Shown: piece after piece, positions 9,801 through 47,370 of the stretch
How the letters are laid out: each line of letters begins with the position of its first letter
How positions within the stretch are numbered: position 1 is the stretch's first letter
Source of the DNA: a virus
Strand: one strand, 5' to 3'
IMG/VR virus record: IMGVR_UViG_3300035698_012980
Span: 1 to 52,007 of that record
Length of the DNA stretch: 52,007 nucleotides
Position numbers and translations under genes: made by a program
The notes under the pieces: model-generated
Seen by the model: the letters and a program-made list of their open reading frames with translations, nothing else
Databases searched by the model: none
Told to the model about the DNA's origin: nothing

Positions 9801-10126
9801 TTAAAATGGGTTCTGATGTGTTTAAACATAACTCTATTGCAATATTAACTGACTTTTCGATAGAAGGAGCCCCTAGATTATTTCAAAGCTATCCAAATCC
9901 AACAATTGGTTTAACAACAATTGAATTTGAAATTATTTATAATGATAATGTGAATATAAAATTATATGATGAAGCAGGTAGAATTATTAAAAATATTACG
10001 AATAAAAAATATGATACTGGCATTCATTCTATTGATATTGATATATCATATTTAAGACAAGGTATTTACTATTATGTAATGGAATCTAACAATACTAAAT
10101 TAACAAAAACTTTAACTTTATTATAA
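6872..10126 (+). CDS. Secreted multidomain protein with T9SS C-terminal sorting domain
   Basis: A 1084-residue protein with a clear signal peptide (MKKLLATLIILMFSFMAFSQ; cleavage likely after residue ~20), meaning Sec export in a Gram-negative host. Next come a YDSYGDGWIGQNC module (residues ~80-92), CARDB-like and jelly-roll (choice-of-anchor/MAM-like) beta domains, and two related modules beginning LKSGWGFMSTY and IDAGWSLIPY (near 715 and 800), each with a VYWP motif. The last ~80 residues read FQSYPNPTIG ... IKLYDEAGRII ... GIYYYVM, the type A sorting domain used by the Bacteroidota type IX (Por) system to cross the outer membrane and anchor on the surface. Such proteins are normal in hosts and rare in phages. 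It could be a host-derived adhesin or surface modifier; no catalytic motif is seen. Confidence 0.85.
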   Translation: MKKLLATLIILMFSFMAFSQVQVNVNYGGWGEENHWEITDIHESVLLTGGGYASSCTDPYEFNATYGMVSGEYIFTAYDSYGDGWIGQNCVGSFEIIPTLGIGTGEVYFNHGMSLSIPFTIFTSDDIDAGICELVSPQTSSLLGIEYPILKIRNYGADTLNNMLLAYTYNTITVSELYTGPLLPGEIFEYTFNQPINMTASGDYELQFTIDTYNDTLHLHNNYLNKTITSINVIDLFPWVETFSEFPVDGWYANSVSLWDTITNTQQPPCTWLSYANTAVFANMYYWPFGYADFRSPPILLTDHSTLSFDWSSSFNALGLEDAMDVQVSTDFGDTWTSIWYRKGIDLLSYDGATSTSPGTYITESFDLTQYTGEVVYVNFKAITGHGANIYIDNVTVTHKDQYDIDLVDISLNGECNLSNEEHINFIVNNNGLDTLTQFMISYYVNGFSYLEIVNATLAPTDPPYVHVSDNTFDMSIAGEYEVDANAIILTSTDLNNICKTFKVLDVIDTFPFIEDFETGTTNYFKFIENENSEVEIFQVDTANYVNSTWAELVSNTYYNGNLGHFVLMSAVGSSNVGWAGNTYELAWGSPTRISEIQSCPIDATSLGTLELKIDLKQFFKYHEYYTWFRILVNDSIIGDLGGNTTYQPGTEYSDDLIQITYNLNEFAGTLFDLTFQAVNKYDNDIYPMGNMTMLDNITLQEVPLITQEINLKSGWGFMSTYVEAPDASFNVLFANMATEIILIKDDHGFVYWPLYELNMIGDMSIYEGYQIKTYNQTNVSIEGYAAIPEENTFTIDAGWSLIPYMRDNPGAVDLVMASVASDIILLGDENGQVYWPYYGVNQLGDMVDGEGYKMSALNSITFTYPSNTDPIILAGSGNKMTVKDLEFYNKVDPSGTNMYLAIESDMMYYGDEVGIFSSGKLIGSTVVQKNGVGIITIWGNDIDLNDHRLINQDEIYTIELFKLNTKSVHRLSNLTFKMGSDVFKHNSIAILTDFSIEGAPRLFQSYPNPTIGLTTIEFEIIYNDNVNIKLYDEAGRIIKNITNKKYDTGIHSIDIDISYLRQGIYYYVMESNNTKLTKTLTLL

Positions 10127-12672: not shown

Positions 12673-12906
12673 ATGGTTAGATCTAAATTAAGATTATCAA
12701 AAATAAGGGATGTAAAAAGCCCGGTTAGAGCAAATGAAACTGATGCAGGTATAGATTTTTTTATACCTGAAGATTTTAGCACGATAGAATTATCACCACA
12801 ATCATCAGTATTGATTCCTGCTGGAATTAAAGTTGATGTACCTAAAGGATTTGTACTTGTTGCATTTAATAAATCAGGTGTCGCAGTAAAGAAAAGTTTA
12901 CAGTAG
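12673..12906 (+). CDS. dut: dUTPase, N-terminal part (frameshifted)
   Basis: Encodes the first ~74 residues of a trimeric dUTP diphosphatase (dUTP to dUMP plus PPi), which keeps uracil out of DNA and feeds dTMP synthesis. Motif 1 (ETDAGIDFFIPED, ~24-36) and motif 2 (FNKSGVAVKK, ~66-75) are present. The frame then reaches a TAG at 12904-12906. Adding one A to the AAAA run at 12892-12895, or a -1 slip there, rejoins the reading frame as KKKFTVGACVVDAG. This is a one-base deletion, a sequence error, or less likely a programmed shift, since no canonical slippery heptamer is present. Confidence 0.8.
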   Translation: MVRSKLRLSKIRDVKSPVRANETDAGIDFFIPEDFSTIELSPQSSVLIPAGIKVDVPKGFVLVAFNKSGVAVKKSLQ

Positions 12907-13141: not shown

Positions 13142-14554
13142 ATGTTATTAGATATCTCACAAGAAGATAGATCGTTATGGGTTTCTTATTATAACCTAAA
13201 CGGCAAGACAAGATTTAAATCATATGATCTTAAACCAGATGATATGTTTAATTGGGAAATTTGTAAATCTGGTGATAAAGGAGCTGATAAAAAAATTACA
13301 AATTGGGATGGAAAACCTGTAAGAAAGAGAAAGGCTAAGTTTCTTAATAAGTATAGAGTAATTGAATATATAGAAAGTTTACCATGGACTGATAAAAATA
13401 CAATATTTGAACATAATTTTCCTAGAACATATTTTGTTGATATTGAAGTAGAAGTCACTGATAAATTTCCAGAACCAGGAAAGGCTGAAAATCCAGTAAC
13501 TGCTATATGTGTAGTAACACCTGAACGACAAGCCGTTGTTTTAGCAACTAAAGATTTAACGAGAGATCAACAATTAAAAATTCAAAATCAAGTTAATAAA
13601 CACTTTGAAGATATTAATTTTGATTTTGAATTTATTTTTAAATGTTTCACCTCCGAGTATGATATGTTATATACATTTATGGATTCTTTTGTTAAAAAGT
13701 TTCCGATGATGACCGGTTGGAATTTTATAAAGTTTGACTGGGCATATATTATTAATAGATGTAAAAAATTAGGTGTTAATATTACATTATCTTCTCCAAT
13801 CGGAAAGGTTTTCGGTAAGAACGAATTTCCCTCTCATGTTGGCGTAATGGATTATTTAGATATTTATGCTAAATGGGATAGAACTATTGATATTAAAGAA
13901 GATCTTAAGCTCGATACAGTGGGCGAAGCAGTTATAGGTATTAGGAAAGTTAAATATGAAGGCACTCTTCAAGATTTATTTGAAAAAGATTATACAAAAT
14001 ATATTTTTTATAATATTATAGATACTGCTTTAGTTTATTTGATTCATGAAAAAATCAAAACGATGGACATTGCATTAACTATTGCATCTTTAAGTCAGAT
14101 AAGTGTATTCAAAGCAGCTTCTCCAGTTTCAATTACTGAATCTCTTTTATGTAGAGAATTTTTAACGAAGGATAAAGTAATGGGAATTGATCCAAATTTA
14201 AGAAATAAGGAACATCAACCATATGAAGGTGCCTTTGTTAAAGCTCCTATTACTGGAATGCACGATGCAGTTGCATGTTTTGATTTTGCATCTCTATACC
14301 CTTCTATTATGAGGGAAGTTAATATTTCTCCTGAAAGTTTTATTAAAATGACTGATCAAAAAAATATAAAAGAGGAAAGGAAAAATAAGGATCAAATTGT
14401 ATCGATAACAGGTGCAACATATTCTACTGAAGATTCTATTCTTAAAGGTATTTTAACTAAATTATATTCTCAACGTAAAGAATATAAAGGTAAATCATTT
14501 GAATATCAGCAAAAGATATATGATTTAAAACAAGAATTAAAGAAAGATAACTAA
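13142..14554 (+). CDS. gp43: Family B DNA polymerase, N-terminal fragment (exonuclease + motif A)
   Basis: A 470-residue fragment of a T4 gp43-like replicative polymerase. The 3'-5' exonuclease is complete: Exo I YFVDIEVEV (~98-106), Exo II GWNFIKFDWAYI (~193-204) and Exo III YNIIDTALVYL (~294-304). It then has polymerase motif A, CFDFASLYPSIMREV (~380-394), which carries the first catalytic Asp. The chain stops in the fingers after a charged helix (YDLKQELKKDN). Motif B and motif C are 13.7 kb away at 28234 and 30128. There is no intein sequence at this break, so the fragments must assemble non-covalently. A similar fingers-region split occurs in some T4-related phages. The 18-bp leader has no Shine-Dalgarno site. 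Confidence 0.9.
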   Translation: MLLDISQEDRSLWVSYYNLNGKTRFKSYDLKPDDMFNWEICKSGDKGADKKITNWDGKPVRKRKAKFLNKYRVIEYIESLPWTDKNTIFEHNFPRTYFVDIEVEVTDKFPEPGKAENPVTAICVVTPERQAVVLATKDLTRDQQLKIQNQVNKHFEDINFDFEFIFKCFTSEYDMLYTFMDSFVKKFPMMTGWNFIKFDWAYIINRCKKLGVNITLSSPIGKVFGKNEFPSHVGVMDYLDIYAKWDRTIDIKEDLKLDTVGEAVIGIRKVKYEGTLQDLFEKDYTKYIFYNIIDTALVYLIHEKIKTMDIALTIASLSQISVFKAASPVSITESLLCREFLTKDKVMGIDPNLRNKEHQPYEGAFVKAPITGMHDAVACFDFASLYPSIMREVNISPESFIKMTDQKNIKEERKNKDQIVSITGATYSTEDSILKGILTKLYSQRKEYKGKSFEYQQKIYDLKQELKKDN

Positions 14555-27471: not shown

Positions 27472-28221
27472 ATGGAAATTAAAATTGACAAAGTTGACGG
27501 CTATGAATTAAGTAGCTTCATAAAAAAATTATTACCAATCGATAAATTTATCTTTATCAAAATTGGCAAAAACCGTACTGTTTCATCTGTGTATTTTCCT
27601 GAGAGAGACGCGGTTAAGTTAGTAACGGTTAACTCTAAAGATGTATTTGATGCACAAGTAGATTCTCCAATTAAAGTTATCTTTTATAATGGACATAAAG
27701 TTATTGATGCTTTATCTCATTTTAACGGAGACATTGAAGGAAGTATTAAGTATAATGAATATGAAGGCGAGCTTATGGCTAGCGATCTTATATTAAAAAA
27801 TGAGGATTTAGAAATTACGATATCATGTGCTGATCCATCATTATCATTTATGGAAATGAGTAAAGATGAAATGAGTAGAGCATTTGCCCCTGATGGTAAA
27901 TTATTTGAATTCGATCTTTTAACAACACATGTTGATAGAATGAAATCATTATTTAATCTTGATAAAGATGAAGAAGTATTTACTTTATCAACAAGTGATA
28001 AAGGTGTAAATGTTAATGGGTTATCATTTAATACAACAATAACTCATACATTTGAATCAGACATACCAAAGTCAGAAGTTGTAATTTATAAGAAGTATCT
28101 AAATCTTTTAGATAAAGAAAATTATAAAGTTATCGTTTGTGAAAATAAAGTAGTATTCAAATCATTAGATACTGACACTCATCTAACAATTGCAGTAGCA
28201 ATAACAGACGAAGAACAATAA
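27472..28221 (+). CDS. gp45: Sliding clamp (DNA polymerase processivity factor)
   Basis: A 249-residue protein, near the 228 of T4 gp45, with the two-domain clamp pattern of repeated beta-strands separated by helices. ISCADPSLSFMEMSKDEM (~116-133) resembles the interdomain part of T4-type clamps, and FEFDLLTTHVDRMKSLFNL plus FTLSTSDKGVNVNGLSFN form the second domain. Acidic Asp/Glu residues dominate, as in clamps with a negative outer surface. It would encircle DNA as a homotrimer and tether the polymerase and late-transcription apparatus. It sits 12 bp before the catalytic fragment of the polymerase, a conserved functional neighbourhood in T4-like phages. Confidence 0.75.
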   Translation: MEIKIDKVDGYELSSFIKKLLPIDKFIFIKIGKNRTVSSVYFPERDAVKLVTVNSKDVFDAQVDSPIKVIFYNGHKVIDALSHFNGDIEGSIKYNEYEGELMASDLILKNEDLEITISCADPSLSFMEMSKDEMSRAFAPDGKLFEFDLLTTHVDRMKSLFNLDKDEEVFTLSTSDKGVNVNGLSFNTTITHTFESDIPKSEVVIYKKYLNLLDKENYKVIVCENKVVFKSLDTDTHLTIAVAITDEEQ

Positions 28222-28233
28222 AAAAAAGAATGA

Positions 28234-28941
28234 ATGACTGCAGTAGAAAGACAGAAAATAGAAGATGAAATTACAAAATTACAATTATTAGCTGATAAGT
28301 ATTATACATTTGAACAAGGAATAAAAACACTATTGAACAGTATTTACGGCGCTTTTGGTAATCAGTGGTTTTATTTCTTTAATGTAGATATAGCTGAGAC
28401 TATTACGTTACAAGGTAAAGATGCGATTCTATATACTGAAGAATTACTCAATAAGTACTTTAGAGAATTTTGGCATAAAGACGTAGAAGCTCATAAAGAA
28501 TTAGGAATAACCGTAACTGATAAAGTTACGCAACCTGTTGGTATATATATAGATACAGATTCGGTAAGTTGTGATACTGTTATTAATACTGATTTTGGTG
28601 ATATGACAATAGAAGAAATGTATCAGCATTCTTTAGATAATAATTTAGGAAATGCTGGTGATACTTTATCAGGTCATAAAAGTGTTAATACTGATTTTAA
28701 AACTCTTAATTGGTCAAATAACAAAGGTTTATATTATGTTCCTATTAATAGAATAATAAGACATAAAGTTTCTAAGAAAAAATGGAAACTTAAACTTAAA
28801 TCCGGAAAAGAAGTAATTGTTACTAATGACCATTCGTTAATTGTTTTTAGAGACGGTATTAAAACTGAAGTTAAACCTTCGGAAATATTAATGACTGATA
28901 AAGTTTTGTCTGTATATAGACAGAAACTTGTGTCTATATAA
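28234..28941 (+). CDS. gp43: Family B DNA polymerase middle fragment with N-half of split intein
   Basis: 235 residues in two parts. Residues 1-109 continue the polymerase: a fingers helix and motif B KTLLNSIYGAFGNQWFYFFN (~31-50), then the thumb-side of the palm up to GIYIDTD, the first part of catalytic motif C. From residue 110 the sequence is the N-terminal half of an intein (SVSCDTVINTDFG...). The polymerase part continues at 30263 after removal of the intein. The insertion site in DTD|S is the classical pol-c site of archaeal and viral family B polymerases. The fragment begins 12 bp after the clamp. Confidence 0.9.
   Translation: MTAVERQKIEDEITKLQLLADKYYTFEQGIKTLLNSIYGAFGNQWFYFFNVDIAETITLQGKDAILYTEELLNKYFREFWHKDVEAHKELGITVTDKVTQPVGIYIDTDSVSCDTVINTDFGDMTIEEMYQHSLDNNLGNAGDTLSGHKSVNTDFKTLNWSNNKGLYYVPINRIIRHKVSKKKWKLKLKSGKEVIVTNDHSLIVFRDGIKTEVKPSEILMTDKVLSVYRQKLVSI
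28561..28938 (+). other. N-terminal half of split intein (DNA polymerase, DTD|S site)
   Basis: 126 residues starting with Ser as the first splicing nucleophile (SVSCDTVINTDFG, block A) and with block B VIVTNDHSLIVF, including the TxxH-type His. It ends at a natural stop (28939-28941), at the position where endonuclease domains are found in full inteins. Its partner is 30128-30262. Confidence 0.85.
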
Positions 28942-28944
28942 ATA
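28937..28944 (+). promoter_or_regulatory. T4-late-like motif TATAAATA before homing endonuclease
   Basis: Exact consensus overlapping the stop of the polymerase N-intein fragment, 22 nt before the endonuclease ATG at 28966. T4 homing endonucleases are often driven from late promoters, so the location fits. Unproven. Confidence 0.4.
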
Positions 28945-28965
28945 TATAAATTAAAACAGTTATAT

Positions 28966-30138
28966 ATGACACAAAATGAACTTACTTCATGGCAAAAGAA
29001 AAATGATGATAGTGCAATATATTGCACAAGTTGTGGTAATTCTATTTTTTATGAAAATACTACAGCTGGTATTAGAACAAAAGGCAAAAATAAAGGTAAT
29101 ATTTTTTATTCAGGCACATCATATAAAACATTTAAAATAATTGATAATAAAAAATATCATATTACAAAATGCTCAGTATGTTTAACTAACGAAAAGCCTT
29201 CGTATGAATTTAAAAATAAAAGTAGAATATTTAACACTTTAAATGAATATGTATCATTTGCATTTGATATTCCAATGAATATTATTAATTATCACAATAA
29301 GAAGAGAGTACCTACATTAAGTAATTTAATAGAGAAGCATGGTATAGAAAAAGGTAATAATATGTGGAATGATTACAAACTAAAACAATCTATAAGTAAT
29401 AGTTTTGAATATAAGAAAGAAAAATTTGGATGGACTAAAACTGAATTTGATAGATTTAATAAATCGCGAGCAGTAACATTAAATAATTTAATATCAAAAC
29501 ATGGTAGTATAGATGGTGTTGATAAATGGAACTTATACTTAAGAGCGCAGAAAAAAACAAAGTCAAAAAATTATGTCATTCAAAAATATGGTATTGATTA
29601 TTGGACTGAATTGTGTAAATCAAAAGCAAATACTATAGATAATTTTATTAAAAGATATGGTAAAGATGAGGGCATAATAAAATTTGAACATTATATCAAG
29701 AAAATAAATTCTTCCTTATTATATACTTCAAATATATCAATGAAATGTTTTAATGAATTAATAAATTATGACGATATTTTTAAAGAATTTGTGATATATT
29801 ATGCCGGTAATAAATACGGTGAATTTGGTAAATATTGTCAATCTAGTGGAAAGTATTATTTTTTGGATTTTTTTATTAAAGATCTTAATCTTTGTATAGA
29901 ATTTAATGGTGATTATTTTCATGCAAATCCTAGTTTATATGAAGATACATTTTCTGATTTTTGGTATACTGATATGTCTGCTAAAGAAATAAGAAGTAAA
30001 GAAGCTGTTAGAATTAATGCTTTATTACAAGATCATAATATATCTACCCTTACTATATGGGAAAGTGATTATAATCTAATTAAAGAAAAAACTTTTGATA
30101 GAATTATCAATATAATAAAAAAACAATATGGTGAGTAA
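28966..30138 (+). CDS. Vsr-like homing endonuclease inside split polymerase gene
   Basis: A 390-residue free-standing endonuclease between the intein halves. N-terminal CTSCGN ... CSVCL forms a likely zinc ribbon (~23-70). Then come Gly-anchored repeats (KHGIEKGNNMWNDY, KHGSIDGVDKWNLY, RYGKDEGIIKFEHY), probable DNA-binding modules. The C-terminal nuclease core, YFLDFFIKDLNLCIEFNGDY with FHANP (~302-326), then KEAVRINALLQDHNISTLTI and WESDYN, fits the Vsr-like EDxHD homing endonucleases known from fractured genes. It would cleave intein-less polymerase alleles to spread the insertion. Its last 11 bases overlap the next start, and it may be coupled to the C-intein gene. Confidence 0.8.
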   Translation: MTQNELTSWQKKNDDSAIYCTSCGNSIFYENTTAGIRTKGKNKGNIFYSGTSYKTFKIIDNKKYHITKCSVCLTNEKPSYEFKNKSRIFNTLNEYVSFAFDIPMNIINYHNKKRVPTLSNLIEKHGIEKGNNMWNDYKLKQSISNSFEYKKEKFGWTKTEFDRFNKSRAVTLNNLISKHGSIDGVDKWNLYLRAQKKTKSKNYVIQKYGIDYWTELCKSKANTIDNFIKRYGKDEGIIKFEHYIKKINSSLLYTSNISMKCFNELINYDDIFKEFVIYYAGNKYGEFGKYCQSSGKYYFLDFFIKDLNLCIEFNGDYFHANPSLYEDTFSDFWYTDMSAKEIRSKEAVRINALLQDHNISTLTIWESDYNLIKEKTFDRIINIIKKQYGE

Positions 30139-30262
30139 ATATAAATTTGAAGAGATAGATTCAATCGAATGTGTAGGTGAATTTGATGATGAATATGTAT
30201 ATGATTTAGAAGTTGATGATGAAACTCACACGTTTATAGCAAATAATATTTTAGTTCATAAT
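30128..30262 (+). other. C-terminal half of split intein (DNA polymerase)
   Basis: 45 residues starting at the ATG that overlaps the endonuclease stop: block F EYVYDLEVDDETHTFIANN and block G ILVHN, ending with the penultimate His and terminal Asn needed for cyclisation. The following Ser (30263) is the +1 extein nucleophile. Confidence 0.85.
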
Positions 30263-31075
30263 TCAATTTATGTAAAATTCGAGGAAGTACTTGAGAAATG
30301 TGATTGGCAAGGATCTTCCAAGGATTTTATTTTAAAGTTATATAAGATTAGGTTAAATACATTTCTTGATCAAATTATGGAAAAATATGCAGTTGATCTT
30401 AATGGTGAAAACTTTTTAAGTTTCGAATTAGAAAGTGTTGCTAAAAATGCAATCTGGCTTGCTAAGAAAAAGTATATGCAGAATATAACTTGGAAAGATC
30501 CTGATATTCATTATGATGATTTAACTAAAATAAGTTCAAAAGGATTTGAAATTATACAATCATCTACTCCCGTATTTGCTAGAGAAAAATTAAAAGAATT
30601 AATTACTTATATTTTTTCAGTTAAAAAATTAAATCTTAAGGATTTTGCTAATAAGCTGAAAGAAATTAAACGACAATTCAAACTAGCAAACATCGATAAC
30701 ATTTCCTTTTCAAAGAAAGTTAATAACTACCAAAAGTATATTGTAAATGATTATGAAGAATTTGAATTTGGATTAAAATGTCCAATCGGTGTAAGATCTG
30801 CAGGATATCATAATTACTTGCTAAATAATTCTAATACTAAAGGTAAGTACCAACAATTAGGTAACGGTGAAAAACTAAAAATGTATTATTCAGTAGATAA
30901 TTCTTGTGATGTATTTGCATATACACCTGGTGATTATCCTTATGAATTTGCACCACAGGTTGATTACGATAAACAATTTGAAAAAACTATACTTGATCCA
31001 ATAAATCGTGTAATTACAGTAATGGGTTTTAAATCATTCAATAGAAATTTATTGTATACTACAAACTTATTCTAA
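30128..31075 (+). CDS. gp43: Family B DNA polymerase C-terminal fragment with C-half of split intein
   Basis: 315 residues. The first 45 are the C-terminal half of the intein, ending ILVHN; the rest is the C-terminal polymerase, beginning SIYVKFEEVLEKC so that splicing rebuilds IDTDSIYVKF, the complete motif C with both metal-binding Asp. It then has AKKKYMQNITW (KKRY-like motif, ~115-125) and a thumb domain ending in FNRNLLYTTNLF. A FNRN..LY..N.F C-terminal peptide resembles the clamp-binding tail of phage polymerases. Summed exteins from three genes give ~849 residues, close to T4 gp43 (898). Confidence 0.9.
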   Translation: MVSKYKFEEIDSIECVGEFDDEYVYDLEVDDETHTFIANNILVHNSIYVKFEEVLEKCDWQGSSKDFILKLYKIRLNTFLDQIMEKYAVDLNGENFLSFELESVAKNAIWLAKKKYMQNITWKDPDIHYDDLTKISSKGFEIIQSSTPVFAREKLKELITYIFSVKKLNLKDFANKLKEIKRQFKLANIDNISFSKKVNNYQKYIVNDYEEFEFGLKCPIGVRSAGYHNYLLNNSNTKGKYQQLGNGEKLKMYYSVDNSCDVFAYTPGDYPYEFAPQVDYDKQFEKTILDPINRVITVMGFKSFNRNLLYTTNLF

Positions 31076-31087
31076 ATAAAATATAAA

Positions 31088-33385
31088 ATGTTAATAGAAA
31101 ATTTATCAAAACTTTCGTTAGCAAACGGCGGAAGTATTACTCCATTAATTATAGATTCAAAGGATTCAGAAGGATTAGGCTTAACTAATCCTTCTATCTG
31201 GATTGATAAAAATGGCAAACATCGTTTGATATTACGAAACGTATCTTATTTGTTTTATCATTCAGAAGGTAGACAAGTACATCAATCTAAATGGGGTCCA
31301 CTTACATATATGCATCCTGAAGATGATCAAGCTTTACGTACTACTAATTTTATCTGTGAACTTGATTCTAATACATTAGAAATAACCGATTGGAAAAAAG
31401 TTGATACATCTAAATTAGATATTAAACCTGTGTGGGAATTTATTGGACATGAAGATGCGCGATTAGTTGAATGGGATGGTGATACTATTCTGACTGGTGT
31501 TCGTAGAGATGTTAAGCCGAATGGTGAAGGCAGAATGGAAATCTCTAAAATTGATAGTAATGGGCATGAATTTTATAGATCAAGAATACAACCGCCTAAT
31601 AATCCTACTTCATACTGTGAAAAAAATTGGATGCCAATTGAAGGTATGCCATGGCATTATGTTAAATGGACAAATCCCACAGAAATTGTTAAAGTTAATC
31701 CGGATACACAGTCATCTGATGTTATATTAACAAAACCTAGATCTGAGAACTTTCATTTTCCTAGAGATCTTAGAGGTAGTAGCCATGTTATAAAATATAA
31801 AGACTATTATGTTGCACTAACTCATGAAGTTGATCTTTGGTTTAATGAAAAGAAAAATAAAGATTCACAATATTATCATAGATTTATTGTATGGGATAAA
31901 GATTGGAATATAGTACATACTTCTGATGAAATTAAATTTATGACAGGTAGTGTAGAATTTACATGTGGAATGGCATTTGATGGTAAAGATTTTATATTAC
32001 CATTCGGCTTCCAAGATTCTACTGCATTTATTTTAAGAATGCCAACTAATGTATTTGAATATGTTGTTGGAATGTCAAAAGATAAAGATGAAGTTAAAGA
32101 TTCTTCTACTTATACTCCAAGTAATTCTCTTATTGAAAGATTTATTGATAGCCCATTTAATGAAGATCTTTCTTTTGCTCTAGCTGAAAAATATTTCAGT
32201 GAGGGTCACTTTGCATCTGCATTATCATTTTATTTAAGAACCGCTGAGTTTGGAATTGATAAACATTTAATATATGATAGTTTATATATGATTGCATGTT
32301 GTATTGGAATTCCAGGAAATAGACATCTTGCTGAATTAAATGCATGGAATGAAGCAGTTGCATATGATCCTAATAGACCCGAAGCTTATCTTAAATTAAG
32401 TGCATATCACGAAGCACGTAAAAGATGGGATGAAGCGTATGTTGCAGCAATGATTGGAAAATCTAATTATCAAAACGATTCTTATATTGTATCTAATCAT
32501 ATAAAATATTATGGCTTAGACGAGTTTAAATTCCAAGAAGCAGTTACATCATGGTGGTTAGGTAAATTTACAAAATCTCGTGAATTATTTTTAGAATTGT
32601 ATAGAAAAGAAATTCAGGTATTACCAGATAATCATCAAACTATAATTAAAAATAATTTAACATTTTTAGGATATAAGATTCCTAAAACTGAATATTATAG
32701 AAAAGGATTACATAAATATCTTAAAGTACCATTTAAAGGATCTGAACAAATAGAAAGAAACTATTCACAGGCATATCAAGATATGTTTGTTTTGACTGTA
32801 TTGAATGGTAAACGTAATGGGAGATATTTTGAAATAGGTTCAGCCGACCCTATCAAAGGAAATAATACATTTTTACTTGAAAAGGACTTTAATTGGACAG
32901 GTGAATCATTAGAAATTTTAATAGATGAAGTTGAAAAATTCAGTGTTGTTAGGAAAAATAAAGTAATTCATACTAACGCATTAGTATACGATTATAAAAG
33001 ACATATGACAGGACATTATGATTATCTCCAGCTTGACATAGATCCTGCTAAAAACACATATGAGTGTTTATTAAAAATCCCATTTGATAAATGTACTTTT
33101 TCTGTAATTACATTTGAACATGATGATTATTTAAAACGAGAATATTTTAGTAATGATAATACATTAGATAATGAATCATATAAAGAAAAAGCTGCGACTT
33201 ATTTAGAGAAAAATGGATATGTTCGCGTTGTTAATAATATCGCAGTAAACAAACAATATAATTTCGAAGATTGGTATGTACATCCTGACCATGTAGATAT
33301 GGATATACTCAAAATACTCTCACAAAAAACAACAGATCCTATATACTCTGTTGTTTTTATGCTAGATAAAGATAAAAATAATTAA
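31088..33385 (+). CDS. Three-domain protein: five-bladed propeller, TPR-like, FkbM methyltransferase-like
   Basis: A 765-residue fusion. Residues ~1-340 look like a five-bladed beta-propeller of the GH43/GH130 type (repeated NPSIWIDKNGKHRLILRN, GHEDARLVEWDGDTILTGVR and GSSHVIKYKDYYVALTHEVD strands), which may bind or cleave glycans. Residues ~355-510 are helical repeats with a TPR-like pattern (ALAEKYFSEGHFASALSFYL, then NEAVAYDPNRPEAYLKLSAY). Residues ~555-765 form an FkbM-like SAM methyltransferase: SQAYQDMFVLTVL, GRYFEIGSADPIKGNNTFLL (SAM motif I) and a YLQLDIDP strand. It could methylate sugars made by the neighbouring cluster. Located between polymerase and UvsX, outside the core replication set. 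Confidence 0.65.
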   Translation: MLIENLSKLSLANGGSITPLIIDSKDSEGLGLTNPSIWIDKNGKHRLILRNVSYLFYHSEGRQVHQSKWGPLTYMHPEDDQALRTTNFICELDSNTLEITDWKKVDTSKLDIKPVWEFIGHEDARLVEWDGDTILTGVRRDVKPNGEGRMEISKIDSNGHEFYRSRIQPPNNPTSYCEKNWMPIEGMPWHYVKWTNPTEIVKVNPDTQSSDVILTKPRSENFHFPRDLRGSSHVIKYKDYYVALTHEVDLWFNEKKNKDSQYYHRFIVWDKDWNIVHTSDEIKFMTGSVEFTCGMAFDGKDFILPFGFQDSTAFILRMPTNVFEYVVGMSKDKDEVKDSSTYTPSNSLIERFIDSPFNEDLSFALAEKYFSEGHFASALSFYLRTAEFGIDKHLIYDSLYMIACCIGIPGNRHLAELNAWNEAVAYDPNRPEAYLKLSAYHEARKRWDEAYVAAMIGKSNYQNDSYIVSNHIKYYGLDEFKFQEAVTSWWLGKFTKSRELFLELYRKEIQVLPDNHQTIIKNNLTFLGYKIPKTEYYRKGLHKYLKVPFKGSEQIERNYSQAYQDMFVLTVLNGKRNGRYFEIGSADPIKGNNTFLLEKDFNWTGESLEILIDEVEKFSVVRKNKVIHTNALVYDYKRHMTGHYDYLQLDIDPAKNTYECLLKIPFDKCTFSVITFEHDDYLKREYFSNDNTLDNESYKEKAATYLEKNGYVRVVNNIAVNKQYNFEDWYVHPDHVDMDILKILSQKTTDPIYSVVFMLDKDKNN

Positions 33386-33388
33386 ATT

Positions 33389-33676
33389 ATGGCAAAAGAA
33401 TTTTCATTTAAAGATTTAAACAAAGAAATGGATAAAATATCAAAGTATGGTGATACTATGGATAAATCAACTGTTTCTGAAATTGATCATTACATATCTA
33501 CCGGTAACTATCATCTTAATGCATGTTTAACTGGTTCAATATATGGCGGTTATCCAAATAATAGAGCAGTTGCATTAGCAGGTCCTTCCGGATGTTTACA
33601 AAAAAATGAAGTTGTAAGAATATATAAAATGAAAAGTTCTAATGGTAAACGATCAAGAAAAATTAATACAGAATAA
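33389..33676 (+). CDS. uvsX: UvsX/RecA-like recombinase, N-terminal fragment with short N-intein
   Basis: 95 residues. Residues 1-68 are the N-terminal UvsX region (SEIDHYISTGNYHLNACLTG and GGYPNNRAVALAGPSG), ending in the first half of Walker A (GPSG). Residue 69 is Cys, the first splicing nucleophile, and residues 69-95 form an unusually short N-intein piece. The rest of Walker A, TGKT, is encoded at 35416 after the C-intein. UvsX coats ssDNA for strand exchange in recombination-dependent replication. Without splicing this product has no ATPase site. Confidence 0.9.
   Translation: MAKEFSFKDLNKEMDKISKYGDTMDKSTVSEIDHYISTGNYHLNACLTGSIYGGYPNNRAVALAGPSGCLQKNEVVRIYKMKSSNGKRSRKINTE
33593..33673 (+). 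other. 27-residue N-half of atypically split intein (UvsX, GPSG|TGKT site)
   Basis: Starts with Cys (CLQKNEVVRIYKMKSSNG) and ends at a stop 27 residues later, well short of the normal ~100-residue N-intein. It contains only block A. Block B lies in the partner (34933-35415). This is the atypical split described for a few metagenomic and phage inteins of ~25-residue N-part. Confidence 0.75.
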
Positions 33677-34940
33677 TAAATCATTAATATGTTTATTTTT
33701 TTATAAGCCTGGATATTTTTATGTGAAATTAGAAAACCCGCGGTCTTATGAAGAGTTTCATTTAATAATGAATTCTGTATATAATATACCTTTATTTGAA
33801 CCTGACTTAAATAGAATTCATTTAAATGAAAGATATCAAGAATATACTCGATTTTTTAATAGTTTTTCATTTGATAAAAAATTTATTTTAGGAAAGACTG
33901 TTTTTGAAAAATTTTGTAATTTTAATACATCTATTGATTTTTATATTGATCGTTCGTATTCTTTAAAATGTGCAAAAGATAAATTAAAACAACGTCAATC
34001 TACATTTACATTAGAAAAATTTAAAAAAAAATATGGTGAAATTATAGGTACAGAAAAATTTAATAATGCTATAACAAAGGGACAAGATACCTTAACAAAA
34101 AGAGATGATTATAGAACTATTTGTAAAAAAAAAGGTAATTCAAGAAGATTTGAATATTACATAGATAAGATTAATAAGAAAACTGGTAAAAAATATACAC
34201 AAGAAGAAGCTAAATATAAAGTTTTTAAATTACAATCTAACGCTTCTAATAAAAGATGGGAGTATTATAAAAATGGATTAAGTAATTATTTACCTAATAC
34301 CTGTTTAGAATATTATCTAAATAAAGGTATGACATTAAATGATGCTGAATATGCATTATATAAAAGACAAGATACAAGTTCATTAAAATCATTTATAGAA
34401 CGATATGGGGAAGTTAAAGGAATTAAAAGATATAACAAGAGAATATTTTTATATAAAGAATCTTGGAAAAATAAAACCGAGGAGGAATTAAAACTAATAA
34501 GAATTAAACAAAGAAGGAACTTATCATATTCTTCTACTGCTGCAAATAATTTTTTTGATAATTTAATGAATGAATTAAAATCTAATAATATTATATTTGA
34601 TAAAGTTTATTACAAAGAGAGAGAATATTTTATATATGATAATAATAAAAAACGTATATTTTTCTATGATTTTGTAATACCAAGTATTAAATATGCATGT
34701 GAATTTAATGGACATAAATTTCATCCTGATCCACGTGTTCATATAAGCAATAGATCCAATTGGAGAGCAGTTTATTCAAATAAGACTTATGATGAATGTG
34801 TAGAATTTGATGAATATAAAAATGCTGTTATAATGAATGATGGATTTACTTTAGATCTCGTATGGGATTTTGAAGACATTAATGATAAAACAAAAAGAAT
34901 ATTAATTAATATAAAAAATAAATTAAAAAACAATGGATAA
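33642..34940 (+). CDS. Vsr-like homing endonuclease inside split uvsX
   Basis: A 432-residue free-standing protein between the first intein's halves; the only early ATG (33642) lies inside the N-intein reading frame, overlapping it by 35 bp. It has repeats like those of the polymerase endonuclease (KYGEIIGTEKFNN, RYGEVKGIKRYNKR), a helical Lys-rich centre, and a C-terminal core FYDFVIPSIKYACEFNG, HKFHPDP and YKNAVIMNDGF ... LVWDFED. The CEFNGHKFHPDP block matches IEFNGDYFHANP in the other endonuclease, so the two belong to one Vsr-like family, though no N-terminal zinc ribbon is visible here. Its stop overlaps the C-intein start by 8 bp. Expected role: homing of the uvsX intein. Confidence 0.8.
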   Translation: MVNDQEKLIQNNKSLICLFFYKPGYFYVKLENPRSYEEFHLIMNSVYNIPLFEPDLNRIHLNERYQEYTRFFNSFSFDKKFILGKTVFEKFCNFNTSIDFYIDRSYSLKCAKDKLKQRQSTFTLEKFKKKYGEIIGTEKFNNAITKGQDTLTKRDDYRTICKKKGNSRRFEYYIDKINKKTGKKYTQEEAKYKVFKLQSNASNKRWEYYKNGLSNYLPNTCLEYYLNKGMTLNDAEYALYKRQDTSSLKSFIERYGEVKGIKRYNKRIFLYKESWKNKTEEELKLIRIKQRRNLSYSSTAANNFFDNLMNELKSNNIIFDKVYYKEREYFIYDNNKKRIFFYDFVIPSIKYACEFNGHKFHPDPRVHISNRSNWRAVYSNKTYDECVEFDEYKNAVIMNDGFTLDLVWDFEDINDKTKRILINIKNKLKNNG

Positions 34941-35415
34941 AAAGAAATTTATAATCAATGAATTAGTATTATTTAATGAATATGATATTAATGAATTAAA
35001 TGGCATGAATATTAATGAATTAACTTTATTATTCAATACACATTGTGATAAATATGCTGAAGAAGTAACAGCATCAGATTTAGTTGATAATTATCAAAAT
35101 ATCGATTTTCTTATAGATTCACCTGATGGCTTTCTGGAAGTTGGCGATTTTTGGAAAAAATCAAATAAAACTATAATAACGATTAAAACCGTAGATAATT
35201 TTTCTGCTAAAGTATCTAGCGATCATTTATTTGAAACTAGTAAAGGCTGGGTGAAGTCAGCATTATTAAACAAAGATGATTTAGTATTAACAAAAAATGG
35301 CTTTCGTAAAATTAATTATAAAAAAACTTGGACAAATCCTGAAGATGTTTATGATTGGGAAATACTCCATAAAAATCATAGATATTGGGCTGGCAATGGA
35401 ATAAGTTCTCATAAT
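34933..35415 (+). other. C-half of atypically split intein (UvsX site 1)
   Basis: 161 residues. After a helical start there is a beta-rich region FLIDSPDGFLEVGDFW, block B AKVSSDHLFETSKGW, block F EDVYDWEILHKNHRYWAGNG and block G ISSHN (penultimate His, terminal Asn). Thr at 35416 is the +1 residue. Almost the whole splicing domain lies in this half, which is the reverse of the usual arrangement. Confidence 0.8.
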
Positions 35416-36117
35416 ACTGGTAAAACTTATCTCCTTCTTAATGGAATTAAGCATGCTCAAATGTTAGGTTATAGCATAGTGTTTTATGATTCTGAAAATG
35501 CAGTAGATCGAGATTTAGTAGAAAAATTTGGAATTGATTCTTCTAAGTTTAGATATGAACCTTGTAATACCGTACAAGAATTTAGAACTTCTGTAGCTGA
35601 TTTAACTGATGTATTACTTGAGCAAAAAGATAAAGGTGTAAAATTACCTAAGATTTTAATAGCATTAGACTCTGCTGGTAATCTTGCAACACAAAAAGAA
35701 GTAGAAGATGCGAAGAGTGGTTCTGATAAAACTGATATGACGAGAGCAAAGTTACTTAAGTCAACATTCCGTATTCTTATGACAAAATTAGGTCTATGTA
35801 AAATTCCATTTATTTTTACAAACCATACGTATCAATGTATGACAGGTGATGTTAAAGTTTTGATGAGTGATGGTACAATTAAAGAAATTAAAAGTATCAA
35901 TGAAGGAGAATTTGTTAAAACATTAGAAGGAGATAAAGAAGTAATATCAACGACTAAATTTAATAAGTCTTTAATAATTAAATTAGAATTAGATAATGGC
36001 GAAATTCTAAAATGTACACCAGAACATAAATTTTTAATTAATAATGATTGGAGAAAAGAAGATTCTTGGAAATCTGCTGATGAATTAACAGTAAATGATA
36101 ATATATTTATACAATAG
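34933..36117 (+). CDS. uvsX: UvsX/RecA-like middle fragment flanked by two intein halves
   Basis: 394 residues in three parts: 1-161 is the C-half of the first split intein, 162-301 is the 140-residue UvsX middle, and 302-394 is the N-half of the second split intein. The UvsX part begins TGKTYLLLNGIKHAQMLGYS, completing Walker A, and includes FYDSENAVDRDLVEKFGID, Walker B-like ILIALDSAGNLA and FIFTNHTYQ. After both splicing events it is joined to 33389 at G|T and to 36174 at Q|T. A single translation product therefore has to take part in two trans-splicing reactions. Confidence 0.9.
   Translation: MDKKKFIINELVLFNEYDINELNGMNINELTLLFNTHCDKYAEEVTASDLVDNYQNIDFLIDSPDGFLEVGDFWKKSNKTIITIKTVDNFSAKVSSDHLFETSKGWVKSALLNKDDLVLTKNGFRKINYKKTWTNPEDVYDWEILHKNHRYWAGNGISSHNTGKTYLLLNGIKHAQMLGYSIVFYDSENAVDRDLVEKFGIDSSKFRYEPCNTVQEFRTSVADLTDVLLEQKDKGVKLPKILIALDSAGNLATQKEVEDAKSGSDKTDMTRAKLLKSTFRILMTKLGLCKIPFIFTNHTYQCMTGDVKVLMSDGTIKEIKSINEGEFVKTLEGDKEVISTTKFNKSLIIKLELDNGEILKCTPEHKFLINNDWRKEDSWKSADELTVNDNIFIQ
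35836..36114 (+). other. N-half of second split intein (UvsX, Q|T site)
   Basis: 93 residues: block A CMTGDVKVLMSDGTIKEI with Cys1, and block B ILKCTPEHKFLI with the conserved His. It ends at a stop (36115-36117) at the canonical split point. Partner at 36174-36290. Confidence 0.9.
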
Positions 36118-36173
36118 TGAATTTAGATGATATGTCTGATAAAAGAATATATTTATAAAAAATAAATTAATTT

Positions 36174-36290
36174 ATGAAAAAATTAAAAATAATAAAAAAA
36201 GAATATTTAACTGAGCTAGAGCCTACATATGACATTACCGTTAAAAATTCGCATCATTATATATTACATAATGGAGTTATTTCACATAAT
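36174..36290 (+). other. C-half of second split intein (UvsX)
   Basis: 39 residues, canonical size: block F EPTYDITVKNSHHYILHNG and block G VISHN with His-Asn at the junction, followed by Thr (36291) as +1 nucleophile. The length and motifs are like the DnaE-type split inteins. Confidence 0.9.
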
Positions 36291-36878
36291 ACAATGGATA
36301 TGTTTTCAAAACAGATCGGAGGAGGAGGAGGAGGACCTGAATATGCTGCTTCAATTATCTTATTCTTGGGTAAATCTAAACTTAAAGATGGCGATGATGT
36401 TAAGATACAAACTGGAATTATAGTTAATGCTAAACCTAATAAGAATAGATTTGTTCAACCAATTCCTATTAAATTTCATATTTCATTTAGTAAAGGAATG
36501 AATCCGTATATAGGATTAGAAGAGTATATTGACTGGGATACTTGCGGAATAGGCAGAGGGAAATTCATTACTGAAACGGCGTTTAAGAAATTAAAAGAAG
36601 ATGAACAAGCTGAATGTAGAAAACATAAGTACATTAAAAATGAAAAAGAAGTTACTGTTTATTTTCAACCAGCCCCTAAAGGTAGAAAATTATGTGTGGC
36701 TCATTTAAATGATACTACTGATCTTAATGAATTATTTACTCCTAGAATTATAACTACTGAAATACTTGATATTCTTGAACCTATTATTAGTGCAAAATTT
36801 CAGTATGATTCTAAGGAAAGTGAATTAGACTTAACTAAGATATCTGAAATAATAAAAAGCGAAAAAGATGCTAAATAA
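36174..36878 (+). CDS. uvsX: UvsX/RecA-like C-terminal fragment with C-half of second split intein
   Basis: 234 residues. The first 39 form the C-intein; the remaining 195 are the UvsX C-terminus: TMDMFSKQIGGGGGGPEYAA (DNA-binding loop L2 and following strand, as in T4 UvsX), SIILFLGKSKLKDG, IPIKFHISFSKGMNPYIGLE and a helical C-terminal region. Summed exteins (68 + 140 + 195) give 403 residues, close to T4 UvsX (391). Only 56 bp separate it from the previous stop and no endonuclease is present. The last 11 bp overlap the next gene. Confidence 0.9.
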   Translation: MKKLKIIKKEYLTELEPTYDITVKNSHHYILHNGVISHNTMDMFSKQIGGGGGGPEYAASIILFLGKSKLKDGDDVKIQTGIIVNAKPNKNRFVQPIPIKFHISFSKGMNPYIGLEEYIDWDTCGIGRGKFITETAFKKLKEDEQAECRKHKYIKNEKEVTVYFQPAPKGRKLCVAHLNDTTDLNELFTPRIITTEILDILEPIISAKFQYDSKESELDLTKISEIIKSEKDAK

Positions 36879-37167
36879 AATCATTAATACAGGTAAACTT
36901 AAAGTTAAATATGTATTGGGAAATCATACTACATTAGTAGGGTATCCTGATACAGAAGATGTTATATTCGAACTTATTAGAGATTATTGTGGTAAGGTAG
37001 CAAAAGAGATAAGATTTACCGATGTGTCTTTACAGAAAAAATATAACATGACTAAACAAAAAACTAAAGATATCATTGAAAAATTAATTAATGAAAAAAT
37101 TTTAGTTGTATTTAATTCTACTTCAGCATACATTACGTATGAAGTAATTAAAAATCCTTATGAATAA
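36868..37167 (+). CDS. Small putative winged-helix protein, 99 aa
   Basis: A 99-residue basic protein starting inside the UvsX coding end (11-bp overlap). The segment RFTDVSLQKKYNMTKQKTKD, then IIEKLINEKILVVFNSTSAY, looks like a helix-turn-helix followed by a beta wing, suggesting DNA binding, but I do not recognise the family. Located between uvsX and the gp41-like helicase, it could be a helicase loader or regulator; T4 gp59 is larger and does not match visibly. Confidence 0.5.
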   Translation: MLNKIINTGKLKVKYVLGNHTTLVGYPDTEDVIFELIRDYCGKVAKEIRFTDVSLQKKYNMTKQKTKDIIEKLINEKILVVFNSTSAYITYEVIKNPYE

Positions 37168-37208
37168 TACAAAACAATTTAAAAAATAATGTATAAAAAA
37201 TATAAATT

Positions 37209-38504
37209 ATGCATACAAACATAGATCATGAAAAAATATTCTTTAATTATTTTTTGGCTAAACCAAATTATTTAAAAAGTGTTAGACCAGGTTTCTTTGC
37301 AAATAGAGATATCGATTATATTGCTAAATTAGCAAAAGAATTTTACCTTAAATTTAGTGAATCACCTTCAAAGGAACAAACGAAGGCTTTACTTAAAGAT
37401 GATTCTAATTCAAATAATGAAATTTCAAATGAAATAGTAAATTCAATATATGATATTAATATCAATGAATATGAACAAGACTGGATAAAACGAACAGCAG
37501 AATCTTGGGTAAAATGGAAACATTTTGATAAACAGTTAGTTAAAACTATTGAATATGTAAAAACACAAGATGTATCACCTGAAAATGTAGAGGATGTAGT
37601 TACAAGAGCAATTAGTATGATATCAACTGAAGGTTCTATTCATTTTGATAGTGATATTGGTTTAGATTTTTTTAATCCTGCACATCATCTTCAACGTAAA
37701 TCTAAAAAACTTGAAACTGGATGGTCTTTTATAGACAATGTATCAGGCGGTGGATATGATCCCAAATCACTTATCATCTACGCGGGCGAAGCCAATGTGG
37801 GTAAGAGCATTTGGTTAGCAAATGATGCGGCGAATTTTATTAGAATGGGGCATAATGTTTCATTTATTACTGCTGAGATGGCAGCCCAAAAAGTTATTAA
37901 AAGAATAGGTGCAAATTTATTAGATATTGGAATGGATGAATATGATGATAAATCAGCTAATCAAGATTTTATTAAAGGGAAGCTAGATAAAGTATCACGA
38001 GGTTTATTGCCACCAGGTAAATTATTTGTTAAAGAATTTCCAACATCACAAGCAAGTGTACTTGATATTGATGCATATTTAAAAGAACTAGAAGAATCAC
38101 AAGATTATAAAGTGGAAGTACTTATTGTAGATTACCTTAATATTTTAGCAAACTATCGTAATCCAAATACTGAAAATACTTATATGAAAATAAAGCAAAT
38201 AGCTGAAGACCTTAGGGCTATTGCACAACGAAGAAATATATTAATAATTTCAGCAACTCAGCTAAACCGAAGTTCATGGGATTCTACTGAAATTCATATG
38301 AATGGTATAGCAGAATCTGCAGGTCTTGCCCATACAGCAGATACTATGTATGCTATTATTCAAGATACCTTAATGCATTCAAATAACGAATATTGGTTGA
38401 AAATATTAAAAATTAGAGATGGTGAAGGTAAAGGATCTCGATGTAGATTTGATATTGACTATAACCGTATGAGAATAATAGAAACTGGTGATATAACAAA
38501 TTAA
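37209..38504 (+). CDS. gp41: Replicative DNA helicase, T4 gp41-like (DnaB family)
   Basis: A 431-residue protein with an N-terminal helical domain and a RecA-fold motor. Walker A is AGEANVGKSIWLANDAANFI (~191-210), Walker B is VEVLIVDYLNIL (~300-311), then a LRAIAQRRNILIISATQLNR stretch (sensor and DNA-loop region, ~335-355) and HTADTMYAII. Length is near T4 gp41 (475). It forms hexamers that unwind DNA 5'-3' ahead of the fork with the primase. The ATG at 37209 follows a TATAAATT that is too close to be its promoter. A 4-bp gap leads to the next gene. Confidence 0.85.
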   Translation: MHTNIDHEKIFFNYFLAKPNYLKSVRPGFFANRDIDYIAKLAKEFYLKFSESPSKEQTKALLKDDSNSNNEISNEIVNSIYDININEYEQDWIKRTAESWVKWKHFDKQLVKTIEYVKTQDVSPENVEDVVTRAISMISTEGSIHFDSDIGLDFFNPAHHLQRKSKKLETGWSFIDNVSGGGYDPKSLIIYAGEANVGKSIWLANDAANFIRMGHNVSFITAEMAAQKVIKRIGANLLDIGMDEYDDKSANQDFIKGKLDKVSRGLLPPGKLFVKEFPTSQASVLDIDAYLKELEESQDYKVEVLIVDYLNILANYRNPNTENTYMKIKQIAEDLRAIAQRRNILIISATQLNRSSWDSTEIHMNGIAESAGLAHTADTMYAIIQDTLMHSNNEYWLKILKIRDGEGKGSRCRFDIDYNRMRIIETGDITN

Positions 38505-46100: not shown

Positions 46101-46107
46101 ATAACAA
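46094..46107 (+). repeat. Left 14-bp direct repeat flanking TnpB
   Basis: TATATAAATAACAA, identical to 47343-47356. It contains the TATAAATA late-promoter motif and the stop of the previous gene, and marks the left edge of the TnpB insertion. Confidence 0.85.
46096..46103 (+). promoter_or_regulatory. TATAAATA motif before tnpB
   Basis: Exact T4-late consensus inside the 14-bp repeat, just upstream of the tnpB frame at 46107; the same motif stands before the portal gene at 47345. Confidence 0.35.
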
Positions 46108-46451
46108 TGGTGTTTTTGATACAAAATGAATATATAATATATAAAATATTAATGATAAGAACATCTAAACATACATTATGTTATGCAAACCGTAACAAGA
46201 TTGATGTTTTAGATTCTTTATATTCTGACTACAAAGAGTTACTTCAACATTATATTCAAATGATTTTAAAGGAACACTTACCAATGAGATTGTTTCTTTC
46301 TAGTAAAGATCTTCCAGATGTAAACGCTATTACACATTCTCAATGGAAACAAATCGCATATAAACAGGCAAGTGAAAATGTTAAATCTTTAATTAAAAAA
46401 TCAAAAATAAAACATATAAAAGATACAAGTATTTATATTCAACTTGTATGA
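46107..46451 (+). pseudogene. tnpB: TnpB N-terminal part (frameshifted)
   Basis: 114 codons containing the N-terminal OrfB-type helices: MIRTSKHTLCYANRNKIDVL (a better start is ATG 46152, which makes MIRTSKH the N terminus), KELLQHYIQMILKEH and QWKQIAYKQASENVKSLIKK. This region recognises RNA and DNA in TnpB. After IKHIKD the frame is wrong: adding one A to an AAAA run (near 46420-46426) rejoins the next frame as IKRYKYLYSTCMKNNIHKSF, which is normal TnpB sequence. So the break is a one-base deletion or error. Confidence 0.7.
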
Positions 46452-46885
46452 AAAATAATATACATAAATCATTTACAAATAGACGATTTAAAGATCTTAA
46501 TGTAAACTATATTAAACGAATTCCAAATATTAACATACAAAATTTGTCTATACCTATAGATAATCGTTTATTTGACATTAAGAAAGAAGGTTCTTTTGAT
46601 GAATTTATAAGAATTAAATCTCCTTATTTTAAGAGAAAGGGAAGAGCTATAACTATTAATGTACCTTTAAAATATCATAGACAAAGCAATAAGTTTTTAA
46701 ATAACAATTGGATAAGAAAGAACACAATACAATTAAAGAAAATTAAAAATAATTTTTATTTGAATATTTTTTGGGAACGTCCTAATGTTATAAAGAACGA
46801 AGTGACAACTGTAATAGGTATAGATGTTGGATATAAAAAACTTATTTCTAGTTCGAATGGTGTACATTATGGGCAAGAATTATAG
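46448..46885 (+). pseudogene. tnpB: TnpB central part (RuvC-I region, frameshifted)
   Basis: 145 codons in the next frame, overlapping the previous frame by 4 bp. It holds the wedge and RuvC-I parts: HKSFTNRRFKDLN, DEFIRIKSPYFKRKGRAITI and VIGIDVGYKKLISSSNGVHY with the catalytic Asp of RuvC-I (~124-143). The frame ends at TAG (46883-46885). Deleting one G of the GGG at 46870-46872 joins it to the third frame as YGKNYSVYNKISRKKQGSKK, the expected sequence. Confidence 0.7.
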
Positions 46886-47342
46886 TGTTTATAATAAGAT
46901 AAGCAGAAAGAAGCAAGGAAGTAAAAAGTTTAAACGTGCTTTAATAGAAAGAAATGAATTAATTAATTTTTATGTAAAACAATTTATAGAATTAGAACAA
47001 CCTGATGAGGTTATAATAGAAGCTTTAAAAAATGTTAAGTATAAATCATCAGGTAAAATATATAATAAAATAATGAACAAATTGCAACGTTGGTCATATG
47101 ATCGTACGTTTAATAAGTTAGAACAATTATCTGAAAGTAAAGGTTTTACAATTAAGAAAATTAATCCTGCTTATACAAGTCAAACTTGTTCAAAATGTGG
47201 TAACATTTGTAAAGAAAGCCGTAATGGCGAAATGTACGAATGTATAAAATGTGGTATAATTATTGATGCGGATTATAATGCAGCGATAAATATATTACAG
47301 AGAGGAGTATATGGTCCCTCTTCCACAAAAACAAAATGTAAT

Positions 47343-47356
47343 TATATAAATAACAA
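47343..47356 (+). repeat. Right 14-bp direct repeat flanking TnpB
   Basis: TATATAAATAACAA, identical to 46094-46107. It overlaps the end of tnpB and lies 14 bp before the portal ATG. Confidence 0.85.
47345..47352 (+). promoter_or_regulatory. T4-late-like motif TATAAATA before portal gene
   Basis: Exact late consensus 19-26 nt before the gp20 ATG at 47371, inside the right 14-bp repeat. Good position for a late promoter read by the gp55-like factor. Confidence 0.5.
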
Positions 47357-47370
47357 AATATAACTAAATT

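What the first reader, a model, noticed from the sequence alone, without database searches (positions are those of the whole stretch)
33389..36878. uvsX recombinase fractured into three genes joined by two different split inteins
The UvsX/RecA protein is spread over 33389, 34933 and 36174. Splice sites fall exactly in Walker A (GPSG|TGKT) and before loop L2 (TYQ|TMDMFSKQ). The first intein is split after 27 residues with a homing endonuclease in between; the second is split canonically (93 + 39 residues). The middle gene carries a C-intein and a different N-intein, so its product must splice at both ends. Summed exteins give 403 residues, close to T4 UvsX. Split inteins are known, but two orthogonal ones inside a single essential recombinase would be unusual.
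Basis: partly seen in the sequence, partly recalled or inferred. Interest (0 to 1): 0.92.

Follow-up and report, generated by a model that had tools for sequence, protein, structure and literature searches.

The report
UvsX gene split in three by inteins
In this virus of bacteria the gene for the DNA-repair protein UvsX is broken into three separate genes whose protein pieces are almost certainly stitched together after translation by two different self-splicing "split inteins", an arrangement that relatives show is real and has been assembled more than once.

Summary
uvsX lies in three genes (33389-33676, 34933-36117, 36174-36878) with exteins of 68+140+195 = 403 aa. Joined, these align without gap or extra residue at either junction to intact UvsX of a relative. 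Intein 1 (27 + 161 aa, Walker A site) is homologous to the solved, atypically split VidaL intein. Intein 2 (93 + 39 aa, start of loop L2) is a canonical split intein. A Vsr/EDxHD-like endonuclease gene (33642-34940) sits inside intein 1.

It is not an assembly error. Three other distinct phages carry the same three-gene uvsX at the same two sites, and a tree shows the four are not one clade. Single fractures at these sites are common. Endonuclease loss and intein transfer can be seen in relatives.

Fractured genes and VidaL-type inteins are known. Two natural split inteins in one protein, with a middle gene that must splice at both ends, I could not find described. The two inteins differ in split point and charge polarity, so mispairing looks disfavoured. 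A relative has a middle gene that supplies only 13 residues of UvsX.

Protein splicing itself is predicted, not shown.

The parts
33389..33592 (+). UvsX N-extein, 68 aa, ends GPSG (first half of Walker A)
   Evidence: phrog_97 UvsX 5e-10; alignment to intact UvsX
33593..33676 (+). IntN1, 27 aa plus stop, N fragment of the atypically split intein 1
   Evidence: starts Cys1 directly after GPSG; same place in 29 other relatives where this side is visible
33642..34940 (+). Free-standing homing endonuclease gene inside intein 1, 432 aa, Vsr/EDxHD-like; overlaps the N gene by 35 nt and the middle gene by 8 nt
   Evidence: phrog_22677 4.6e-11, shared with the polymerase endonuclease; invariant D, E, G, H in alignment A8; weak fold matches to Vsr 1cw0 (prob 0.98, E 0.085) and I-Bth0305I 3r3p (prob 0.84, E 0.5)
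34933..35415 (+). IntC1, 161 aa, C fragment of intein 1, with about 42 extra helical N-terminal residues
   Evidence: PDB 6vgv VidaL E 2e-10; fold match rank 1, TMt 0.73, rmsd 2.0; helices in the model
35416..35835 (+). UvsX middle extein, 140 aa, TGKT ... NHTYQ
   Evidence: phrog_97 1e-29; PDB 9gbg UvsX
35836..36117 (+). IntN2, 93 aa plus stop, N fragment of canonical split intein 2
   Evidence: TIGR01445 intein_Nterm 2e-12; PF14890 3.5e-12
36118..36173 (.). 56-nt spacer between IntN2 and IntC2, no endonuclease
   Evidence: L015 has an endonuclease ORF here and L016 a shortened one
36174..36290 (+). IntC2, 39 aa, C fragment of intein 2, ends HN
   Evidence: TIGR01443 intein_Cterm 1.1e-7
36291..36878 (+). 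UvsX C-extein, 195 aa plus stop, starts TMDMFSKQ
   Evidence: phrog_97 2.5e-5 and phrog_18112 recombinase 7e-11; alignment to intact UvsX

Best explanation
uvsX is a doubly fractured gene. Three polypeptides are translated separately. IntN1 (27 aa, on the N piece) docks with IntC1 (161 aa, on the middle piece), and IntN2 (93 aa, on the middle piece) docks with IntC2 (39 aa, on the C piece). Each pair folds into a Hint domain and does class-1 protein trans-splicing (Cys1, block-B His, His-Asn end, +1 Thr), giving one 403-residue UvsX and two excised intein complexes. The arrangement arose from mobile inteins at conserved active-site motifs. Endonuclease genes sat inside those inteins as separate genes, spread them by homing, and can be lost later while the break stays. 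Shown: anatomy, homology, exact junctions, recurrence. Seen in relatives: endonuclease decay and intein transfer. Inferred: splicing itself, its order, and the failure of wrong pairs to splice.
For: Exact junctions against intact UvsX. Intein profiles for intein 2; VidaL by sequence and fold for intein 1. Cys1 kept in 30 of 30 and HN|T/S in 36 of 36 site-1 loci; Cys1 and HN in all ten intein-2-type pairs examined. Same double fracture in L015/L014, L016, L018. Endonuclease in the fracture with conserved overlaps. Endonuclease decay: L116 full versus L114 with a clean 943-bp deletion; L015 full versus a 97-aa ORF in L016. Intein transfer: L021/L024 IntC1 99% identical, exteins 71%.
Against: No splicing was shown. 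The contig shows frameshift-like breaks elsewhere (dUTPase near 12895, DUF2828/7788 near 11070, TnpB 46107-47363), so single-base errors in this record are possible, though relatives exclude them as the cause here. PF14890 on IntC2 (17.7 bits) is below its cut-off.
Confidence: 0.9

Rival explanations
1. Assembly or sequencing error: uvsX is really one gene with two contiguous inteins (like Salicola phage SCTP-2, which has two contiguous inteins, the second at another site) and the breaks are false.
For: Frameshift-like breaks elsewhere in this contig; SCTP-2 has contiguous inteins at site 1 and site 2b.
Against: Three other distinct phages have the same three genes with the same split points within both inteins, one of them in two assemblies. 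The endonuclease ORF between the pieces is conserved.
Confidence: 0.02
2. The pieces assemble without splicing: broken UvsX works as a non-covalent complex and the intein parts are dead remnants.
For: The same phage's DNA polymerase also has a break without any intein (13142-14554 and 28234-28941).
Against: Catalytic junction residues are invariant across very diverged relatives, which is not expected of dead remnants; site 1 cuts Walker A itself, so the two halves of the ATP site would have to meet without a bond.
Confidence: 0.05
3. Joining at RNA level or during translation (group I or II intron, or ribosomal bypass) instead of protein splicing.
For: Phages do carry introns with endonucleases of this class (general knowledge; PMC3943268).
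Against: No Rfam match in 28000-37500 at E up to 1. The segments to be removed encode conserved intein residues.
Confidence: 0.01
4. The double break is kept as a control: UvsX becomes active only when all three chains have accumulated.
For: The break persists without an endonuclease at both sites in L018 and at site 2a in the window.
Against: Most relatives keep an intact uvsX, and scattered gain on the tree is what selfish mobility predicts; a break may simply be hard to reverse.
Confidence: 0.1

Closest known systems
Fractured genes with split inteins and free-standing endonucleases (Dassa et al. 2009, NAR 37:2560; paper not held, content from memory, reference seen)
   Same: Replication/repair gene of a phage broken by a split intein with a free-standing Vsr-related endonuclease gene in between.
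   Different: Here one gene is broken twice by two different split inteins; the arrangement I recall breaks each gene once.
VidaL intein (PDB 6vgv; 16-aa IntN, PMC13014065)
   Same: Intein 1 is homologous by sequence and fold; split close to the N end; the VidaL chain ends in a Walker A extein SGK.
   Different: IntN1 is 27 aa, and IntC1 has about 42 extra helical N-terminal residues.
Pseudomonas phage PA5oct uvsX (NC_071039)
   Same: Fractured at the same Walker A site: 17-aa IntN, endonuclease gene, IntC with the rest of UvsX.
   Different: Only one fracture; rest of UvsX in one piece.
T4-like phages TG1, SEA1, Thanatos-1, vB_VmeM-32
   Same: uvsX fractured by a split intein with a gene in between, annotated as an endonuclease in TG1 and Thanatos-1.
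   Different: One fracture, at another site (GGG|TG, end of L2).
Salicola phage SCTP-2 uvsX
   Same: Two inteins in one UvsX, one at the same Walker A site.
   Different: Both contiguous in one 661-aa ORF; second intein at site 2b.
Engineered tandem protein trans-splicing (PMC12707363)
   Same: Three segments joined by two orthogonal split inteins.
   Different: Man-made; here it occurs in a natural gene.

Membership tests
Fractured gene with split intein | Host protein encoded in separate genes carrying complementary intein fragments | tested here: met
Fractured gene with split intein | Free-standing endonuclease gene in the break | tested here: met
   site 1 yes (33642-34940); site 2a no in the window, yes in L015
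VidaL-type atypically split intein | Short IntN (about 15-37 aa) and long IntC with a VidaL-like Hint fold | tested here: met
   27 aa IntN; range from PMC13014065
Canonical class-1 split intein | Cys1, block B C/T-x-x-H, terminal HN, +1 T/S, IntN about 100 aa, IntC about 35-50 aa | tested here: met
   93 + 39 aa, CTPEH, HN, +1 T
Split intein | Splices in trans | not testable with these tools
   needs expression or proteomics
EDxHD homing endonuclease | Vsr-like catalytic fold with the conserved acidic/His residues | tested here: inconclusive
   conserved D, E, G, H; best fold matches are Vsr and I-Bth0305I but E only 0.085-0.5; no sequence match in the PDB
UvsX/RecA recombinase | Walker A GxxxxGKT and RecA-core homology in the spliced product | tested here: met
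   GPSG+TGKT; PDB 9gbg E 7.5e-59, T4 UvsX 3io5 E 3.3e-36

The most novel reading that the evidence does not exclude
Natural tandem trans-splicing: one protein built from three genes by two mutually exclusive split inteins, assembled more than once independently in phage uvsX. Mispairing is prevented by different split points (IntN1+IntC2 lacks block B; IntN2+IntC1 duplicates it) and opposite charge polarity (IntN1 +, IntC1 -; IntN2 -, IntC2 neutral to +). The middle gene has IntC-extein-IntN order, which would cyclise the middle piece if its own two halves paired, so this exclusivity would be under selection. In relative L040 the same logic has shrunk the middle gene to 13 UvsX residues.
Probability: 0.55. 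Interest if true: 0.75.

Novelty: new variant of a known kind. Interest (0 to 1): 0.62.

Why it matters
Split inteins and fractured genes are known. A single natural protein that must be assembled from three chains by two different split inteins was, as far as I could find, only an engineering design (PMC12707363). The relatives offer natural, presumably non-crossing intein pairs for protein engineering, and snapshots of how genes break: contiguous intein, split with endonuclease, endonuclease remnant, bare split. It also makes testable whether nature needs orthogonality, and how.

Tried and rejected
A single-protein scan of IMG/VR with the window's middle gene found nothing; a close relative's UvsX and alignments were needed. 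The genome-contig scan gave no relatives. Alternative genetic code or frameshift rejected: the pieces are in different frames with stops between. Introns: no Rfam hit. The first automatic state calls were wrong for the window, L002, L025, L040, L044, L072 and L120 and were set by hand from the junctions. The first UvsX tree had long branches that may attract; it was rebuilt without them. Literature: no held paper combines 'split intein' with UvsX, or 'two split inteins' with 'same gene' and 'naturally'; the 2009 fractured-gene paper is not in the library, so the novelty claim is provisional. One search call failed on wrong coordinates and was not repeated.

Full report
OBSERVATION. Joined exteins align to the intact UvsX of the uncultured phage LR756500 through GPSG|TGKT and NHTYQ|T without a gap or extra residue. 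All pieces match UvsX profiles, and the joined protein matches solved UvsX structures (9gbg E 7.5e-59; T4 UvsX 3io5 E 3.3e-36).

THE TWO INTEINS. Intein 2 is recognised by intein_Nterm (2e-12) and intein_Cterm (1e-7) profiles. The profile libraries do not recognise intein 1 with confidence, but IntC1 matches the VidaL intein (PDB 6vgv) at E 2e-10 over 121 residues, and the VidaL chain ends in SGK, as in a Walker A extein. A predicted model of the middle protein (mean pLDDT 78) has VidaL as its best solved match and UvsX second. IntC1 carries about 42 extra N-terminal residues predicted as helices, of similar length in L015, L016, L018, L019, L021, L023 and L024 and absent from L115 and L116 and from PA5oct. 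Their role is unknown; helping the short IntN1 dock is a guess.

THE ENDONUCLEASE. ORF 33642-34940 shares phrog_22677 with the gene inside the fractured polymerase. Its invariant residues and its weak but coherent fold matches to Vsr and I-Bth0305I fit the EDxHD class described in PMC3943268. It overlaps the N gene by 35 nt and the middle gene by 8 nt. Similar N-gene overlaps occur in L015, L019 and L023, which suggests translational coupling.

NOT AN ARTEFACT. Scans of IMG/VR gave relatives in every state. Double fracture at sites 1 and 2a: window, L015 (the same virus also as L014), L016, L018. Site 1 only: PA5oct and many others. Site 2a only: L070, L073. Site 2b only: Lak-B5, L044, L072 and cultured T4-like phages. 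Contiguous at site 1: SCTP-2, L119, L120, L128. All sites empty: the largest class (72 loci by the automatic count). Across 36 site-1 loci HN|T/S is kept in all, and Cys1 in all 30 where that side is visible; some of these loci are near-duplicates.

HISTORY. In the extein tree the four double-fractured proteins are scattered, and one clade is strongly rejected (p-AU 1e-54, log-likelihood difference 567). At least six changes are needed at site 1 and six at site 2a. Separate gains and transfer of the inteins into different lineages both fit. L021 and L024 have 99% identical IntC1 but 71% identical exteins, a recent transfer. Endonuclease loss is visible: L116 full gene against L114 with a clean 943-bp deletion; a 347-bp remnant in L021 against none in L024; an endonuclease-like ORF at site 2a in L015 against a 97-aa ORF in L016 whose first 82 residues are 67% identical. 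In the window, intein 1 still has its endonuclease and intein 2 has none.

HOW WRONG PAIRS MAY BE AVOIDED (inference). IntN1 ends before block B and IntC2 starts after it, so that pair lacks the block-B histidine; IntN2 and IntC1 both carry it. Net charges in the four double-fractured phages: IntN1 +6, +1, +4, +4; IntC1 -6, -13, -14, -19; IntN2 -5, -9, -13, -11; IntC2 +2, 0, +1, +2, so wrong pairs are like-charged or near neutral. This is not universal: IntN1 of the single-fractured L021, L024 and L107 is -3 to -2. The middle protein has the order IntC-extein-IntN, known from engineered peptide cyclisation (general knowledge), so mispairing would cyclise it.

A STRIKING RELATIVE. In L040 uvsX is broken at 2a and 2b. 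Its middle gene (L040:5341-5793) is IntC (40 aa) + TQDLFSKQVGGGG + IntN (97 aa): a gene that supplies 13 residues, in the loop L2 region. The joined L040 protein matches intact L049 exactly at both junctions. An engineered 13-residue middle segment was reported in PMC12707363.

SAME FAMILY, OTHER GENES. VidaL-like split inteins sit at the Walker A motif of a PhoH-like gene (L026) and of a clamp-loader-like ATPase gene (L038) (gene names from reading the sequence), so this intein lineage is not confined to uvsX.

VERDICT. The arrangement is real, recurrent and very probably works by double trans-splicing (0.9). It is a new variant of a known kind. Splicing, its order and exclusivity remain to be shown.

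Noticed in passing
L040:4206-6657 (IMGVR_UViG_3300036670_000250): uvsX broken at two sites 13 residues apart; the middle gene L040:5341-5793 is IntC + TQDLFSKQVGGGG + IntN, so a whole gene supplies only 13 residues of UvsX.
   Followed up: yes
window 13142-14554, 28234-28941, 28966-30138, 30128-31075: The phage's family-B DNA polymerase is also in three genes: one break without intein (parts 13.7 kb apart) and one split intein at YIDTD|S (126 + 45 aa) with an endonuclease gene in between. LR756500 has the same polymerase split intein with a different type of gene between.
   Followed up: partly
L026:3713-6975 and L038:1358-4137: VidaL-like split inteins at the Walker A motif of a PhoH-like gene and of a clamp-loader-like ATPase gene.
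   Followed up: partly
L021 and L024: Site-1 split intein 97-99% identical between phages whose UvsX exteins are 71% identical; a 347-bp endonuclease remnant in L021 is gone in L024.
   Followed up: yes
L015:6766-7803 and L016:7220-7513: Endonuclease-like ORF in the second fracture of L015 and a shortened 97-aa ORF in L016 (first 82 residues 67% identical), a snapshot of decay.
   Followed up: yes
window 34933-35090: IntC1 has about 42 extra N-terminal residues, predicted helical with good confidence, not in VidaL; function unknown.
   Followed up: partly
window about 11070, about 12895, 46107-47363: Frameshift-like breaks in a DUF2828/DUF7788 gene, a dUTPase and a TnpB-like gene; real decay, programmed shifts or sequencing errors not decided.
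   Followed up: partly
window 6872-10126: 1084-aa protein with a T9SS type A sorting domain (TIGR04183, 9e-9), hinting at a Bacteroidota host.
   Followed up: no
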